NCBI GenBank assembly: GCA_900314715.1
Contig: OMWI01000010.1
Coordinates: forward strand, 1 to 64,000
Source of the DNA: an uncultured Prevotellaceae bacterium
Lineage (GTDB): Bacteria > Bacteroidota > Bacteroidia > Bacteroidales > Bacteroidaceae
DNA: 64,000 nucleotides
Direction: 5' to 3'
Shown here: positions 4,273 to 58,153 of the stretch, piece by piece
Layout: each line of letters begins with the position of its first letter
How positions within the stretch are numbered: position 1 is the stretch's first letter
Made by a program: the position numbers and the translations under genes
The notes under the pieces: generated by a model
What the model was told of the DNA's origin: nothing
Database searches by the model: none
Seen by the model: the letters and a program-made list of their open reading frames with translations, nothing else

Positions 4273-4375
4273 AAACATATAATTACAACAACAAACATAT
4301 ATAATAATGCTCGTAAACATATTATTTTACTTATCTAAACAATATGTTTGATGAGAAAAAACATACTGTTTAGCC
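4273..4375 (+). repeat. 22-nt dyad repeat array 1 (5 units)
   Basis: Units begin AAAC-ATA and end near GTTTA. The C of each AAAC is at 4276, 4296, 4318, 4340 and 4362, so the last four are exactly 22 nt apart. The best unit is AAACAATATGTTT at 4337-4349. The array lies between two converging genes. Confidence 0.7.
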
Positions 4376-4523
4376 CATCATAAAGCATCATTTCATCATT
4401 TTAACATTTAGTTTGCGATTTTTCTCGATAGTTTTTTGTTAAGGAAATTACTCAAGTAAAAAGAAGCGAATGGAACAATTTGTTGTCCCATTCGCTTTCA
4501 ATTTCTCATTTGTCTTTAGTTTG

Positions 4524-6994: not shown

Positions 6995-7638
6995 GAACAG
7001 AAAAGATAATGATGGTGATTGCCATCTGGTTGTTGAGTAGTTGTGCGATAGCGCAAAGTAGTATCGACAAGATTGTAGACGAACTTGAGAAAAAGGGCGT
7101 AGACGTGAATTACGTAGCGAAACGAGACCCTAAGACCAAACAGGTTTATTTGCAAACGAAAACGTTGAGCTTTTATAGTAAGGAAGGAAAGTATGCGAAT
7201 CGACTGAAAGAGGCTTTCAGAAAGGAAGGAGAGAATGCCGCAACAGAAACGTATAGTCATTCTGGGAATAATTATACATTGGTTTTCAAGGATGGTAAAA
7301 AGAAGTATACCTACACGCTTTCCATCACCAATAAGAATGACGGTAATCCGCTCGTTTATTTAGCTATTGTTTTCCGCAATTATTCCGTAGATGCTGAGGA
7401 TGATTTCTGGGATAGGTTTCACATTGAAGGATTCAATTCCATAGAACATTTAGACTCATTGGGCTTTGATTTTGATACGTCGCAATGGACAAAACAATTT
7501 AAGGATGTATTCGAGAAATATAAGAAAGATGCGGTTAAGAAAAGAACCATTATAATACGGGAAAAGATGGAACATCTTAAAGACTCGTTGAAAAACCATC
7601 ATGCGATAGCGACTCTTAAACGTTTGAGAAAAGCATAA
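6991..7638 (+). CDS. Secreted hypothetical protein in the sigma-factor operon (possibly DUF5024-like)
   Basis: A 215-residue protein with an N-terminal export signal. LLSSC at 14-18 could be a lipobox, or cleavage could follow IAQ. The region after it (SIDKIVDELEKKGVDVNYVAKRD) resembles small Bacteroides secreted proteins found behind ECF sigma/anti-sigma pairs. The last ~60 residues are charged and helical. Its function is unknown. As the third gene of the operon it may be the signal-sensing or effector component (inference). Confidence 0.6.
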   Translation: MRTEKIMMVIAIWLLSSCAIAQSSIDKIVDELEKKGVDVNYVAKRDPKTKQVYLQTKTLSFYSKEGKYANRLKEAFRKEGENAATETYSHSGNNYTLVFKDGKKKYTYTLSITNKNDGNPLVYLAIVFRNYSVDAEDDFWDRFHIEGFNSIEHLDSLGFDFDTSQWTKQFKDVFEKYKKDAVKKRTIIIREKMEHLKDSLKNHHAIATLKRLRKA

Positions 7639-11037: not shown

Positions 11038-11112
11038 GGTTCCGTAGCTCAGTCGGATTAGAGCAACAGCCTTCTAAGCTGTGGGTCTTGGGTTCGAATC
11101 CCAACGGAATCA
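11038..11112 (+). tRNA. tRNA-Arg (anticodon TCT)
   Basis: The acceptor stem GGTTCCG (11038-11044) pairs with CGGAATC (11105-11111). The D-arm starts GCTC, and the anticodon loop CTTCTAA carries TCT (AGA codons). The T-arm TTGGG-TTCGAAT-CCCAA is intact. CCA is not encoded. The 3' half is duplicated just downstream. Confidence 0.92.
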
Positions 11113-11411: not shown

Positions 11412-11752
11412 AAGACCTCCCGTCGTTTTCCATAATATCCTAAGTAATAAGGAGTTGTAAAACAGAAAAGCTTGAAAGACCTCCCGTAAGACCTCCCGTA
11501 AGACCTCCCATAGACCTCACCTAACACCTCCCGTCTTACTGACTTAGTTCTCGGTTGATTCTCTTTCCACACGTTCATTTCAAGTGTATTAGAGTATTGC
11601 TGCATCAATCACTTTTGTTATGAACTTACACCATCACCAACGGGAGGTTTAACGGGAGGTCTATGGGAGGTCTTACGGGAGGTTTTAGGTGAGGTCTTAA
11701 AAATGTTAAATCGTTGATAAAGAACGAATTAACATAAAAAACGGGAGGTCTT
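11412..11752. repeat. Large inverted repeat A with arms of 12-nt units
   Basis: The left side has one unit AAGACCTCCCGT at 11412-11423, then about five tandem units at 11475-11535 (variants AAGACCTCCCAT, AGACCTCACCT). The right side has the reverse complement: about five units at 11638-11699 and one isolated ACGGGAGGTCTT at 11741-11752. The arrangement is a near mirror image around a ~100-nt centre with no gene. A minus-strand frame through it translates the units as a Gly-Arg-Ser-Tyr repeat and is probably spurious. Nothing else coding is seen in 11113-12037. Confidence 0.8.
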
Positions 11753-11804
11753 CAAGAAAACGATAAAATTCATGTTTTACAGAAAATAAGCAAACTGAAA
11801 ACAT

Positions 11805-11928
11805 AAACCGTAGCTTTAGACGATGTAAACGATAGCTTTAGACGATGTAAACGATACGTTTGTATGCTATAAACCATTCATCTGTAACGTACAAATCAAT
11901 GGTTAGTAGCATATAAAGCTATGGTTTC
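11805..11928 (+). repeat. 22-nt dyad repeat array 2 (6 units)
   Basis: The fourth base of each unit is at 11808, 11830, 11852, 11874, 11896 and 11918, exactly 22 nt apart. The third unit core AAACGATACGTTT is a good dyad. The 8-nt tails include GACGATGT twice. Confidence 0.8.
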
Positions 11929-12037
11929 TAACTAATAGTAGGCTACTAATCTGACTGTCTGCGACATCTATATCATGCAAACAAAGATTTCTATATACTT
12001 TTCTGTGAAGGTCTTGATGTCAATAGATTTAACCATC

Positions 12038-25219: not shown

Positions 25220-25365
25220 AAAGCATATATGTGGAAGAGAAAACATATACATTTACGAGGATAAAGATAAACTTTAGAGTCCGTAAAGTATAGTTTTGCG
25301 ATGAATACAACTTAATTTTAGTCTTGAAAGCACTAATTTTGCTTCTCGTAAATTCTATTTTGAAT
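25220..25365 (+). repeat. 22-nt dyad repeat array 4 (4 clear, 2-3 decayed units)
   Basis: Register bases are at 25223, 25244, 25266 and 25288 (21, 22 and 22 nt apart), with weaker units near 25310, 25332 and 25353. Cores include AAACATATACATTTA and AAAGATAAACTTTA. Confidence 0.6.
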
Positions 25366-30737: not shown

Positions 30738-30822
30738 AAACCATACGTTTCTGCTTCACAAACCATATATTTACGACTCAAAAACGATATGTTTACGTCG
30801 TGCAAACACTATGTTTGTGAAA
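30738..30822 (+). repeat. 22-nt dyad repeat array 5 (4 units)
   Basis: Register bases are at 30741, 30763, 30785 and 30807, exactly 22 nt apart. Cores AAACCATACGTTT, AAACCATATATTT, AAACGATATGTTT and AAACACTATGTTT are among the clearest. A partial unit precedes at 30723. Confidence 0.8.
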
Positions 30823-38802: not shown

Positions 38803-38880
38803 ATACTTTACGACAGATAAACGATATGTTTGCGTCTCGTAAACGATATGTTTACCTTCGCTAAACACTATCTTTAGAAG
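38803..38880 (+). repeat. 22-nt dyad repeat array 6 (3 clear units), starting at a stop codon
   Basis: Register bases are at 38822, 38844 and 38866, 22 nt apart, with cores AAACGATATGTTT (twice) and AAACACTATCTTT. A decayed unit in the same register (ATACTTTACGACAGAT) begins right after the ATPase stop codon at 38799-38801. Confidence 0.8.
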
Positions 38881-45491: not shown

Positions 45492-45539
45492 TCGATTATT
45501 CTATAGAAGTAAGAGAACTATCATGGCGATAGGCGTTTC

Positions 45540-45692
45540 AAGCGTTTCAGCGTTTCAGCGTTTCAAGTGTATCAGATATGTTTCAAAACCCCTTTCTTAG
45601 AATATATAACTAATTAATAATCAATAAATTATATAAGACAAAAATGCATACCCTCAAAATACTAACTGAAACGCTGAAACGCTGAAACGCTT
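45540..45692. repeat. Inverted repeat C: 26-nt perfect arms of AGCGTTTC units
   Basis: The left arm 45540-45565 is three AGCGTTTC units plus ends. The right arm 45667-45692 is its exact reverse complement. The 101-nt loop is homologous to that of inverted repeat B (ACCCCTTTCTTA..., ATAACTAATTAATA, ATGCATACCCT) although the arms share no sequence with B. Confidence 0.85.
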
Positions 45693-45770: not shown

Positions 45771-46020
45771 ACGCCTCAGAAAAGGCATAGAATGCGTAGA
45801 ATTCCTTCTCTCAGGCTTCAAAATACATTCACGAACTGCTTATTTTGATGCTTTTTTCCTTTATTGTATATGATTATGATAAGACATAAAACCAAAAGTA
45901 TCAAAAACCATCTACAAAATTCAATATATGTGGCCATAACTGATGAAAATAGTAAAATATTCAATGAAAACATACAAGTAACGGAAGGTAATTAGCCGTT
46001 AAGACTTTGCTCGCCTATGA
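45771..46020 (+). repeat. Duplicated non-coding element, copy 2
   Basis: Matches 42942-43200, including CTCTCAGGCTTCAAAATA and ATAACTGATGAAAATAGTAA. At its right end, where copy 1 has a single CTATGACAGA, this copy runs into inverted repeat D built from that same motif. Confidence 0.75.
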
Positions 46021-46129
46021 CAGATATGACAGATAGAATAGCAACTTTCTCTATAGGAAATTATTTACCCCCGACCTAAATGTTTTTCTATATACGAAAG
46101 TTATATATCTATCTGTCATATCTGTCATA
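46016..46129. repeat. Inverted repeat D: 22-nt perfect arms of ATGACAGAT units
   Basis: The left arm 46016-46037 (TATGACAGATATGACAGA...) is the exact reverse complement of 46108-46129. The unit is 9 nt and the loop 70 nt. Confidence 0.8.
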
Positions 46130-46150
46130 CACTACAACAAAGGGATTCGA

Positions 46151-46240
46151 AAAGTGCTATTTATGCCCTGTAAATGATACACTTTGACTACATAAACGAT
46201 ATGTTTTAGACATCAGAAACAATAAGTTTATGAGTTATAA
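46151..46240 (+). repeat. 22-nt dyad repeat array 7 (4 units)
   Basis: Register bases are at 46154, 46175, 46197 and 46220 (21, 22 and 23 nt apart). Cores include AAACGATATGTTT and AAACAATAAGTTT. Confidence 0.65.
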
Positions 46241-47190: not shown

Positions 47191-47307
47191 AGTCACGACA
47201 GATTATATATGTTATGTCTACTTTACTCCTTTCTTACTTCATTTACGACATTGAAGATTAAAAAGGAGAAATTAGAAAGTTGGAAAAACAAATTATTTTG
47301 TTCGCAC

Positions 47308-47446
47308 AAACCATAGCTTTAGATGATGTAAACCATTGATTTATACGCTACAGACGAATAATTTATGTGTTACAGACGAATGGTTTATATCAAACAAATC
47401 AATGATTTTTAGCATATAAATGAATGGTTTGTAAAACACAAATGAC
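47308..47446 (+). repeat. 22-nt dyad repeat array 8 (7 units, exact register)
   Basis: Register bases are at 47311, 47333, 47355, 47377, 47399, 47421 and 47443, every interval exactly 22 nt. Cores change together, for example AAACCATTGATTT, AGACGAATGGTTT and AAATCAATGATTT. This is the longest and most regular array. Confidence 0.85.
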
Positions 47447-47483: not shown

Positions 47484-47553
47484 GCAAAAGATATACTATA
47501 TTTTAGGCAAAGATATTATATATTTTCGGCAAAGATATAGCTAAAAAATATGT
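47484..47553 (+). repeat. Short tandem repeat of GCAAAGATAT-type units (3 copies)
   Basis: Units starting at about 47484, 47508 and 47530 begin GCAAAAGATAT or GCAAAGATAT and continue with TATATTTT-like sequence, 22-24 nt apart. Unlike the dyad arrays they lack the AAAC/GTTT ends. Apart from this and array 8, 47191-47684 holds only the GH10 promoter. Confidence 0.55.
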
Positions 47554-52015: not shown

Positions 52016-53074
52016 TTATTTAGACTCTTCCATTTCATCTTTGATATCAAGCCACAACGCCTCCACGTCTTCTTGCAACCATTCCAAGTTGCAATCTTCA
52101 GGCTTAAATCCCTTGGGGATGTCATACCATTCAAGGCGTTCTTTATCTTCCGCCGTCTTACGCTTTTTCTTGTTTGTTTCAAGGAGATCAGCATATCCAA
52201 ATACACCACCACAATCTTCGGGTGGACACTCACCAGCAGCTTTCAACAACTTGATGACTGGTTCTTCTCCAGGAGCATAGTCGCGCGAACCTTTTACCCA
52301 CAAGTCGTGTACCCATGAATCGCCATAGTCATATTCAAACTTCATTCTATCGCCCTTGGGTTGGAGAACCATTTCAAGTGTCGTCTGTTCGCTATTCTTA
52401 TATTGTACAGGAGACATGAATCCCATAAAACTATCTGTCTGTTCTTTCATTTCATGGGAGTTGATATAATATACATCGTGTTTTCCGATGAATTGATAAA
52501 GGTGTTCATGTTGCCATCCCATGGCATCAAGTATCACGTATGCCAACATCTCCAAAGTAATGTTAGAAGGAACAACCAACTCGCGCCAGATGGGTACGGG
52601 TGCGTTGTTGAGCTTGATACGAATATGGAACTCACGTTTTGACTTGCCGATAAACTTAGCCTTGGGAAGAGTCAAGCCATACAAATAGTCCTCATCATCA
52701 AACCCTTCGTTGTCTTCATAGTCTTCATCATCCTCATCAAAGTCCTCGTCATCATATTCTTCATCATCATCGTAGAACTCATCGTCCTCGTCATCATACT
52801 CATCATCATCATCGTAGAATTCATCGTCAAGCATGATGTCCTCAAGCTTGAAGTCTCTATTTATTAACTTCTCCTCATCCATAGTGAGAACCTTCATGGG
52901 ATCTAAGCCACTTTTGATCATAAAACGAAAAAAATCTTCAAAGCTCTTGACACCTTCATTTTTAAACATCTCAATCGTTTCTTTGGGGAGCGTTTCCAAT
53001 AAATCGTCAAAAGTAAACGGTAACTCTTGTTCCTTTTGCTCTACCTTTGGGGTCATTTTCTTAATCTTTGCCAT
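52016..53074 (-). CDS. pRiA4b ORF-3-like protein with an acidic linker
   Basis: A 352-residue cytoplasmic protein. Residues ~1-75 are helical and ~80-135 are an almost pure Asp/Glu/Tyr stretch. The C-terminal ~200 residues match the plasmid pRiA4b ORF-3 family (IRIKLNNAPVPIWRELVVPS, LEMLAYVILDAMGWQHEHLY, FEYDYGDSWVHDLWV, ECPPEDCGGVFGYADLLE). The family is widespread in bacteria and linked by name only to a plasmid; its function is unknown. The acidic run is encoded by GAT/GAA repeats, so its length probably varies between strains. Confidence 0.82.
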   Translation of the reverse strand: MAKIKKMTPKVEQKEQELPFTFDDLLETLPKETIEMFKNEGVKSFEDFFRFMIKSGLDPMKVLTMDEEKLINRDFKLEDIMLDDEFYDDDDEYDDEDDEFYDDDEEYDDEDFDEDDEDYEDNEGFDDEDYLYGLTLPKAKFIGKSKREFHIRIKLNNAPVPIWRELVVPSNITLEMLAYVILDAMGWQHEHLYQFIGKHDVYYINSHEMKEQTDSFMGFMSPVQYKNSEQTTLEMVLQPKGDRMKFEYDYGDSWVHDLWVKGSRDYAPGEEPVIKLLKAAGECPPEDCGGVFGYADLLETNKKKRKTAEDKERLEWYDIPKGFKPEDCNLEWLQEDVEALWLDIKDEMEESK

Positions 53075-58061: not shown

Positions 58062-58092
58062 TTCATTCAAGAAGCTATCCTTTACAATATGC

Positions 58093-58153
58093 AAATACTA
58101 TGTTTACGAGCTGTAAATATATCATTTAGCAGTCGTAAACATGGTATTTGCAT
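58093..58153 (+). repeat. 22-nt dyad repeat array 9 (3 units)
   Basis: Register bases are at 58096, 58118 and 58140, exactly 22 nt apart. Cores are AAATACTATGTTT, AAATATATCATTT and AAACATGGTATTT. It sits just 3' of the minus-strand mannanase gene. Confidence 0.75.

What the first reader, a model, noticed from the sequence alone, without database searches (positions are those of the whole stretch)
47308..47446. A dispersed family of 22-nt-period dyad arrays in nine intergenic regions
Seven units here keep an exact 22-nt register (47311 to 47443). The same unit, AAAC (or AAAT, AGAC) + 5 nt + GTTT(A) or ATTT + 8-9 nt, occurs in arrays at 4273, 11805, 18670, 25220, 30738, 38803, 46151 and 58093, about 38 units in total. 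It is not CRISPR (conserved part only ~13 nt, spacer 8-9 nt, no cas genes), not a REP element I can name, and not coding. The 22-nt spacing is about two helical turns, which would put every unit on the same face of the DNA, as for cooperative protein binding or chromosome organisation. An RNA role is equally possible.
Basis: partly seen in the sequence, partly recalled or inferred. Interest (0 to 1): 0.85.

Follow-up and report, generated by a model that had tools for sequence, protein, structure and literature searches.

The report
Widespread 22-base DNA lattice in Prevotella
Between many genes of this Prevotella, and of many of its relatives, lie short stacks of a 22-base unit with a fixed AAA…TTT frame but different core words in different lineages; they look like repeated landing sites for an unknown DNA-binding protein, and the literature searched here did not describe them.

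Summary
A detector using only the frame AAA-N7-TTT at exact 22-nt spacing finds the same nine regions (38 units) in the window, all outside long ORFs; 200 shuffles average 0.01. Genome-wide the three-unit frame has 422 matches, against 5 for the reversed pattern and 10 at period 21. Gaps 7 and 9 stand out: 73 hits against a mean of 1.2 over 196 gap pairs, and 1 if TTT becomes AAA. The frame occurs 20 or more times in 120 of 398 same-genus genomes and 11 of 226 from other genera of the family. Core words differ between lineages; frame and spacing stay. Real arrays hardly fold better than arrays with randomly flipped units, and show no clear gene-orientation or terminator bias, against an RNA role. 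Most likely each 13-bp unit is a dimer site of an unknown protein, stacked every two helical turns; the main rival is selfish MITE-like repeats, since at least 7 of 28 sampled arrays, the finding's included, belong to one dispersed family. Not CRISPR-like, not RAYT-linked REPs, not plain A-tract curvature. Binding protein and function are not shown.

The parts
47286..47430 (.). array of the finding: seven units at exact 22-nt spacing (47286, 47308, 47330, 47352, 47374, 47396, 47418); a type B copy
   Evidence: type B by similarity to 11795-11945
47487..47539 (.). second, different 22-nt tandem just downstream (AAAGATATA... unit, 2.4 copies)
   Evidence: (TRF period 22, 87% matches)
4315..4393 (.). 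lattice array, 4 units, between convergent ORFs
11805..11927 (.). type B lattice array, 6 units; 40 related places (itself included) scored in the genome
18670..18726 (.). lattice array, 3 units; the orthologous intergenic region of G167 also holds an array with other units
25241..25319 (.). lattice array, 4 units, upstream of an aspartokinase-homoserine dehydrogenase gene; G167 has a diverged array in the same intergenic region, with further units that read as 21-nt spaced
   Evidence: (by reading)
30738..30816 (.). lattice array, 4 units, downstream of threonine synthase; absent from the orthologous site of G167
38819..38875 (.). lattice array, 3 units, upstream of a pyruvate:ferredoxin oxidoreductase-like gene; no array scored at this site in G167
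46150..46206 (.). lattice array, 3 units (a further AAAC...GTTT unit at 46217 is one base out of register)
58071..58149 (.). lattice array, 4 units; its left flank reads like that of the arrays at L023:15915 and L034:13228
   Evidence: flank likeness by reading, not computed

Best explanation
The arrays are double-stranded DNA platforms: tandem stacks of 13-bp dyad sites, AAA-N7-TTT, repeated every 22 bp, that is two helical turns, so that successive sites face the same side. Each unit most likely binds one dimer of an unknown dyad-recognising DNA-binding protein, and 3-8 dimers load side by side. The 7-nt core word carries lineage-specific specificity. In some genomes the platform has also spread as, or inside, non-autonomous MITE-like repeats (type B here, the element of at least ~240 nt in G017). 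Shown: the lattice, its exact spacing, the strict AAA/TTT alternation, mostly intergenic position, word lexicons that differ between genomes, homologous dispersed copies for some arrays and no shared flank (in the DNA held) for others, and presence/absence differences between sister species. Inferred: the binding protein, its dimeric state, cooperative loading, and any role in chromosome organisation or local gene insulation.
For: Spacing 22 in 58 pairs against 1 at 21 and 2 at 23. Gap scan in 464 kb of G000: (7,9) 73 hits, mean 1.2 over 196 gap pairs, AAA/AAA at the same gaps 1, so a dyad and not only A-tract phasing is kept; the (7,9) peak recurs in G058 (21), G218 (19) and G167+G160 (20), each against a mean of 0.4. 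Period-21 control against period 22: 10 against 422 in G000, 14 against 757 in G017, 2 against 417 in G058. In 25 G000 arrays not flagged type B (87 units) the word CATATCG or its complement occurs 16 times; word pairs agreeing at 6 of 7 or better 671 against shuffle mean 278, max 333, while spacers are only weakly alike. Unit orientation is not arranged for pairing in G000. Gene contexts follow the background, no terminator association. 12 of 28 arrays have no repeated flank on either side in 597 kb of this genome; 8 of these 12 are neither type B nor inside a long ORF.
Against: No protein was identified and no binding data exist. Frame conservation in G000 is partly forced by the detector. 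The flank test saw only about 15% of the genome. A weak copy signal in spacers (15 pairs of at least 8/9 identity against mean 4, max 10) means some arrays without shared flanks may be old copies. In G017, G058 and G218 the arrays look like homologous copies, so lattice conservation there can be descent. At least 7 of 28 G000 arrays are type B copies, so spread by copying also happens in this genome.
Confidence: 0.45

Rival explanations
1. Purely selfish, non-autonomous intergenic repeats (MITE- or REPIN-like). The lattice is the recognition region of a transposase or other mobilising enzyme, and hosts merely tolerate it.
For: Type B: 40 scored places in G000, the query included, at 76-100% identity (87 first-look candidates); 7 of 28 sampled arrays; ends reading AGGTTAGAAAC...GTTTCTTACCT and variable numbers of 22-nt units in the alignment of 30 (by reading). 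G017: 335 first-look candidates and 40 scored copies of a 241-nt query, in divergent 8, convergent 8 and tandem 13 of the 29 loci of 30 that could be classed. Absence of the 30738 array in G167.
Against: 8 of 28 arrays are neither type B nor in a long ORF and have no repeated flank in the 597 kb held. Words recur in unlike spacers. The same frame persists with unrelated words in many genomes. No Y1 transposase match in G000, G017 or G058; other transposase families were not searched. No autonomous copy or target-site duplication was seen, but none was systematically sought.
Confidence: 0.35
2. Intrinsically curved DNA: phased A-tracts that act as bends for the nucleoid or for plectoneme tips, without a sequence-specific protein.
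For: A wedge-model calculation (parameters recalled) gives mean net bends of 68 (G000), 53 (type B), 90 (G017), 66 (G058) and 70 degrees (G218) for real arrays against 35, 48, 35, 36 and 32 after letter shuffling and 43 for random intergenic windows; period 27 gives 28-38. A-tract periodicity linked to nucleoid proteins is in print (PMC3940949, passages read).
Against: Curvature needs only A-tract phase, yet AAA-7-AAA-9 is not enriched (1 against 73). Shuffled words in the same frame bend as much as real ones or more in four of five sets and 2 degrees less in G017; type B is hardly above its shuffles. Curvature does not explain word lexicons.
Confidence: 0.1
3. An RNA element: arrays are transcribed and units pair with one another, as a processing, stability or termination signal.
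For: Units and their reverse complements occur in the same arrays; in G017 real arrays fold slightly better than flipped ones (mean z -0.49, sem 0.20, n=11); in G167 one array ends in the loop of a terminator-like hairpin (by reading); [quoted passage not shown]
Against: In G000 real arrays do not fold better than arrays with units and spacers flipped at random: mean z +0.39 (sem 0.18, n=30), type B +0.21 (0.23, 24); elsewhere G058 -0.36 (0.29, 14), G218 -0.56 (0.36, 8), G167 +0.20 (0.42, 4), G160 +1.79 (0.26, 2). Terminator-like sites within 60 nt in 2 of 28 arrays against 19% of 321 control placements (crude detector). Gene contexts follow the background. The only Rfam match in the window is a tRNA.
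Confidence: 0.07
4. Ordinary minisatellites made by replication slippage of one 22-nt unit at each site.
For: Within G000 arrays neighbours are closer in direct (52) than inverted (26) orientation, ties 8; type B 70, 34, 15; unit number varies in type B.
Against: Slippage cannot place inverted neighbours in register (26 of 86 pairs in G000; 17 inverted against 11 direct in G017, 23 against 14 in G058), nor make the same frame and words at unrelated sites.
Confidence: 0.03

Closest known systems
REP / BIME / REPIN repeats mobilised by RAYT (TnpA-REP)
   Same: Extragenic, high copy, species-specific, palindromic units clustered in direct and inverted order; [quoted passage not shown]
   Different: Strict 22-bp spacing and a 13-bp A3/T3 dyad; no GTAG/CGTC-tagged hairpin was noticed (not searched for); no Y1_Tnp match in G000, G017 or G058; only 1 of 19 Y1_Tnp loci from 20 genomes has an array within about 1.5 kb.
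BrickBuilt MITE of Porphyromonas gingivalis (23-nt minisatellite inside a MITE)
   Same: Same order; intergenic; tandem ~22-nt units in variable number inside a dispersed element with short inverted ends, as in type B here (PMC4596501: abstract, sections 5 and 8, and part 1 of 2 of section 7 read).
   Different: BrickBuilt has 19 copies in ATCC 33277, 1 to 22.8 direct repeats, IS5-like ends such as GAGACCTTTGCA, and DNA matches reported in P. gingivalis and P. gulae only; here units occur in both orientations with an AAA-N7-TTT frame, the type B ends read AGGTTAGAAAC, some arrays show no surrounding element, and matches run to hundreds in many genomes of a genus. BrickBuilt letters were not compared with these, nor were the 22-nt tandem repeats that the paper says were reported in P. 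gingivalis W83.
Genomic A-tract periodicity / A-tract clusters
   Same: A/T runs phased at about 11 bp (PMC3940949, passages read).
   Different: Here a discrete, strict AAA-7-TTT-9 dyad lattice with word lexicons, not a statistical periodicity.
Iterons and multi-site transposase or partition sites with about 22-bp or 11-bp spacing (recalled, no call)
   Same: Stacked protein sites at two-turn spacing.
   Different: Those sit at one or a few loci (origin, element ends, centromere); these are scattered over many contigs of the genome.

Membership tests
CRISPR array | Identical repeats of 24-48 bp separated by unique spacers of similar size (sizes of repeats from a passage of PMC3733652) | tested here: not met
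   Units of 13 nt, spacers of 9 nt, units variable and in both orientations
CRISPR array | cas genes nearby | not tested
   No cas search was run; ten window proteins were scanned with Pfam and none of these matched a Cas family
REP/BIME/REPIN | Extragenic, high copy, clustered in direct and inverted order | tested here: met
   26 of 28 arrays in 464 kb lie outside ORFs of 100 aa or more (with a slightly different rule says 25)
REP/BIME/REPIN | Unit is an imperfect palindrome forming a hairpin under selection | tested here: inconclusive
   Only a short A3C/GT3 dyad in G000; pairing between units not selected there; pairing within a unit was not tested separately
REP/BIME/REPIN | Cognate RAYT (Y1_Tnp, PF01797) gene in the genome | tested here: not met
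   No match in G000, G017, G058, G160, G030, G032, G300, G052, G039, G046; matches in the other 10 of 20 genomes, array-rich and array-poor alike
REP/BIME/REPIN | RAYT gene flanked by the repeats | tested here: not met
   1 of 19 Y1_Tnp loci (G038) has a lattice array within about 1.5 kb
MITE (type B and the G017 element) | Dispersed homologous copies without coding capacity | tested here: met
   home-made ORFs of 104-218 aa overlap some of the 29 G017 copies classed and are probably spurious
MITE (type B and the G017 element) | Terminal inverted repeats | tested here: inconclusive
   AGGTTAGAAAC...GTTTCTTACCT read in several of the 30 aligned type B copies; no formal test
MITE (type B and the G017 element) | Target-site duplication and a related autonomous element | not tested
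   No strain pairs in hand; no systematic search for either was made
BrickBuilt | 23-nt unit, IS5-like ends GAGACCTTTGCA | tested here: not met
   Unit 22 nt; ends differ by reading (against Table 2)
A-tract curvature cluster | A-tract phase alone is what is conserved | tested here: not met
   AAA/AAA at the same gaps 1 against 73 for AAA/TTT
Known structured RNA | Match to an Rfam model | tested here: not met
   Only a tRNA at 11038-11112 at gathering threshold in the window

The most novel reading that the evidence does not exclude
A genus-wide bacterial chromatin-like system: hundreds of intergenic platforms on which an unknown dimeric protein loads in 22-bp steps, with site words and protein specificity co-evolving as lineage dialects, so that each lineage has its own set of chromosome landmarks.
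Probability: 0.3. Interest if true: 0.9.

Novelty: new variant of a known kind. Interest (0 to 1): 0.72.

Why it matters
If right, part of the intergenic space of one of the commonest gut and rumen genera holds an undescribed, fast-changing DNA code read by an unknown protein. It gives a direct handle on how Bacteroidales organise or insulate their chromosomes, a genome-wide marker for lineages, and a repeat class that annotation and assembly should know of. Even under the selfish reading it is a genus-wide repeat class with hundreds of matches in many genomes and no mobilising enzyme identified.

Tried and rejected
RNA pairing between units: not supported in G000 by the flipped-unit control, with a weak contrary trend in G017. 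Terminator association: one striking case (G167 orthologue of C38:64027), but over 28 arrays there is no excess (the home-made detector is crude and missed at least the hairpin after thrC at about 30665). Gene-orientation bias: none seen in G000, 16 tandem, 6 divergent, 3 convergent of 25 against 94, 34, 19 of 147 background regions; the ORF-based gene calls are crude and put 8 of 16 G017 and 9 of 15 G058 arrays inside ORFs of 100 aa or more, probably spurious. REP/RAYT: no cognate gene. Position conservation between G000 and G167: of 24 orthologous intergenic regions both have arrays in 3, G000 only in 4, G167 only in 1, neither in 16 at threshold 16 (at threshold 17 the table is 2, 5, 1, 16); one-sided hypergeometric P about 0.06 for threshold 16 worked out by hand, confounded by region length, so only suggestive. 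Named relatives at the threonine operon: 1 of 80 loci (L154) holds a strict array, and the gap scan over these 946 kb shows no clear (7,9) peak ((8,8) 12, (8,9) 10, (10,14) 10, (7,9) 9), so single sites are not conserved. A correlation of array number with a candidate DNA-binding protein was not tried: no candidate family. Literature: searches returned no paper; some searches returned only PMC5771137 (passages), PMC4596501 and PMC7352683 (listing only); one search found BrickBuilt; one search gave REP papers; A-tract papers. None describes such arrays in Prevotella in what I saw; the library lacks most subscription journals.

Full report
WHAT IS THERE. The array at 47286-47430 has seven units at exact 22-nt spacing. 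In the whole 4.05-Mb assembly the two-unit AAACN5GTTT pattern has 489 places with up to two mismatches against 10 for the reversed control, and 236 against 1 with up to one. The three-unit frame has 422 against 5 reversed and 10 at period 21. These are matches, not arrays: a long array gives several.

ANATOMY. In 464 kb of G000 (400 kb of stretches plus the window) the spacing is 22 in 58 pairs, 21 in 1, 23 in 2, with echoes at 44 (35), 66 (12) and 88 (9). Scanning all gap pairs from 2 to 15, AAA-7-TTT-9 repeated twice occurs 73 times against a mean of 1.2; AAA/AAA with the same gaps occurs once and TTT/AAA five times. The lattice is therefore a dyad lattice, not merely phased A-tracts. The (7,9) peak recurs in G058 (21), G218 (19) and G167+G160 (20), each against a mean of 0.4, and in G006 (9 against 0.3); in G017 and G039 the top is (8,8), also period 22, with (7,9) second, because A and T runs are often one base longer. 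G300 (60 kb held) shows no clear peak, though its whole genome has 134 and 76 matches. Of 28 AAAC-frame arrays found in the 464 kb, 2 lie inside long ORFs of 631 and 734 aa.

WORDS. The N7 core is not random. In 25 G000 arrays not flagged type B (87 units; they include loci that were fetched because they fit the pattern best), the word CATATCG or its complement occurs 16 times, CCATATA 8, CACCATA 7; word pairs from different arrays that agree at 6 of 7 or better number 671 against a column-shuffled mean of 278 (max 333), while spacers agree at 8 of 9 in 15 pairs against a mean of 4 (max 10). Other genomes use other words: CCGTAGG, CAGCCGC, CAATAGG in G017; CGGCACG and kin in G058; CAAATTG and CAAACTG in G218 (in G218 there is no word excess over column shuffles, 196 against 193.8, since few words make up nearly all units); GCATAGC in G039; GCTTAGC in G357 and GGTCAGC in G350. 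G124 shares G017's words, so dialects may follow clades; no tree was made.

DISTRIBUTION. In one search (398 same-genus genomes, G000 included, many incomplete) 120 have at least 20 matches on the pattern or its reverse, read off the table; they were not inspected one by one. The reverse pattern is a conservative control, since symmetric lattices match it too. As a further control, period 21 was run on 40 chosen genomes (33 with many matches, 7 with few): forward counts are 29 or fewer in 29 of the 33 and 4 or fewer in all 7; G208, G211, G302 and G423 have 73-138 and seem to carry a 21-bp form too, and the reversed period-21 pattern reaches 50 in G006, 44 in G211 and 26 in G010. In the family (249 genomes, completeness 85 or more asked for) 10 of 22 further same-genus genomes and 11 of 226 genomes of other genera reach 20. 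In 40 genomes of other families of the order, the AAAC two-unit pattern gives 0-4 forward and 0-2 reversed.

TWO ORIGINS MIXED. Type B, to which the finding's array belongs, has 40 scored related places in G000, the query included (87 first-look candidates), and makes up 7 of the 28 sampled arrays. Thirty were aligned: ends resembling AGGTTAGAAAC and GTTTCTTACCT, and a variable number of one 22-nt unit (by reading). A further group (L019:6091, L023:15915, L032:2442, L034:13228, perhaps window 58071) shares flanks. 12 of 28 arrays have no repeated flank on either side in the 597 kb of G000 held; two of these are type B copies and two lie in long ORFs, which leaves 8. In G017 the array sits in an element of at least ~240 nt with 335 first-look candidates and 40 scored copies, in all gene orientations (divergent 8, convergent 8, tandem 13 of 29 classed).

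TURNOVER. G167 (whose contig C42 has the length of DJXW01000034.1, Prevotella sp. UBA6994) is collinear with part of the window. Site 18670 holds arrays in both, with different units; the region of 25241 too, there with further units that read as 21-nt spaced in G167; the array at 30738 is missing in G167. Over 24 orthologous intergenic regions the table is 3 both, 4 G000 only, 1 G167 only, 16 neither, only suggestive of position conservation.

WHAT IT PROBABLY DOES. Against RNA: in G000, units flipped at random fold as well as the real ones (z +0.39 and +0.21); G017 leans slightly the other way (z -0.49, sem 0.20), G058 and G218 too by less than two standard errors; no clear gene-orientation or terminator preference; no Rfam family over the arrays in the window. 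Against simple curvature: AAA/AAA is not used, although the frame does give predicted bends of 53-90 degrees against 32-48 for shuffled sequence (recalled wedge parameters, a model and not a measurement; type B only 53 against 48). Against REP/RAYT: no Y1 transposase in G000, G017 or G058 and 1 of 19 such loci near an array. What remains is a DNA site with dyad symmetry, repeated every two helical turns, with words that change between lineages. The simplest mechanism is a dimeric protein per unit, loaded in stacks. Whether the host uses it or an unknown mobilising enzyme does is open. On checking, the flank argument proved weaker than first written (8 of 28 rather than 12, in 15% of the genome), so I lowered the platform reading from 0.5 to 0.45 and raised the selfish one from 0.3 to 0.35.

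PRIOR ART. BrickBuilt (PMC4596501) is the nearest published thing for type B; BIMEs (PMC2817692) for the general look; A-tract periodicity (PMC3940949) for the phasing. None has the lattice described here in the passages read. Searches found no description in Prevotella in the held library.

Noticed in passing
window 11476-11534 and 11640-11699: Five-copy 12-nt tandem AAGACCTCCCGT and its inverted partner about 105 nt away; similar stretches read beside another array of G000 (C38:117940 region).
   Followed up: no
window about 46013-46129: What reads as an inverted self-repeat of about 117 nt (80% identity) just left of the array at 46150.
   Followed up: no
window 47487-47539: A second, different 22-nt tandem (AAAGATATA... 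unit) just after the array of the finding.
   Followed up: partly
window 52712-52829: 42-nt tandem repeat inside the minus-strand ORF 52016-53074.
   Followed up: no
window 45533-45575 and 45666-45691: 8-nt tandem GCGTTTCA and its inverted partner CTGAAACG.
   Followed up: no
L271 about 7100-7260 (G167 orthologue of G000 C38:64027-64181): A 4-unit array whose last unit reads as the loop of a terminator-like hairpin; G000 has a single unit in the same loop (place).
   Followed up: partly
G208, G211, G302, G423 (whole genomes): Apparent 21-bp form of the lattice alongside the 22-bp one.
   Followed up: no
L234-L263 (G017 elements): Sequences resembling outward Bacteroidales -7 promoter boxes at both ends of the element; motif recalled, not tested.
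   Followed up: no
L071:15205 (G167): A type B-like array shortly beyond the end of the alignment to window 46133, near the contig end; may correspond to the window array at 46150 but was not in the 24 compared regions.
   Followed up: no
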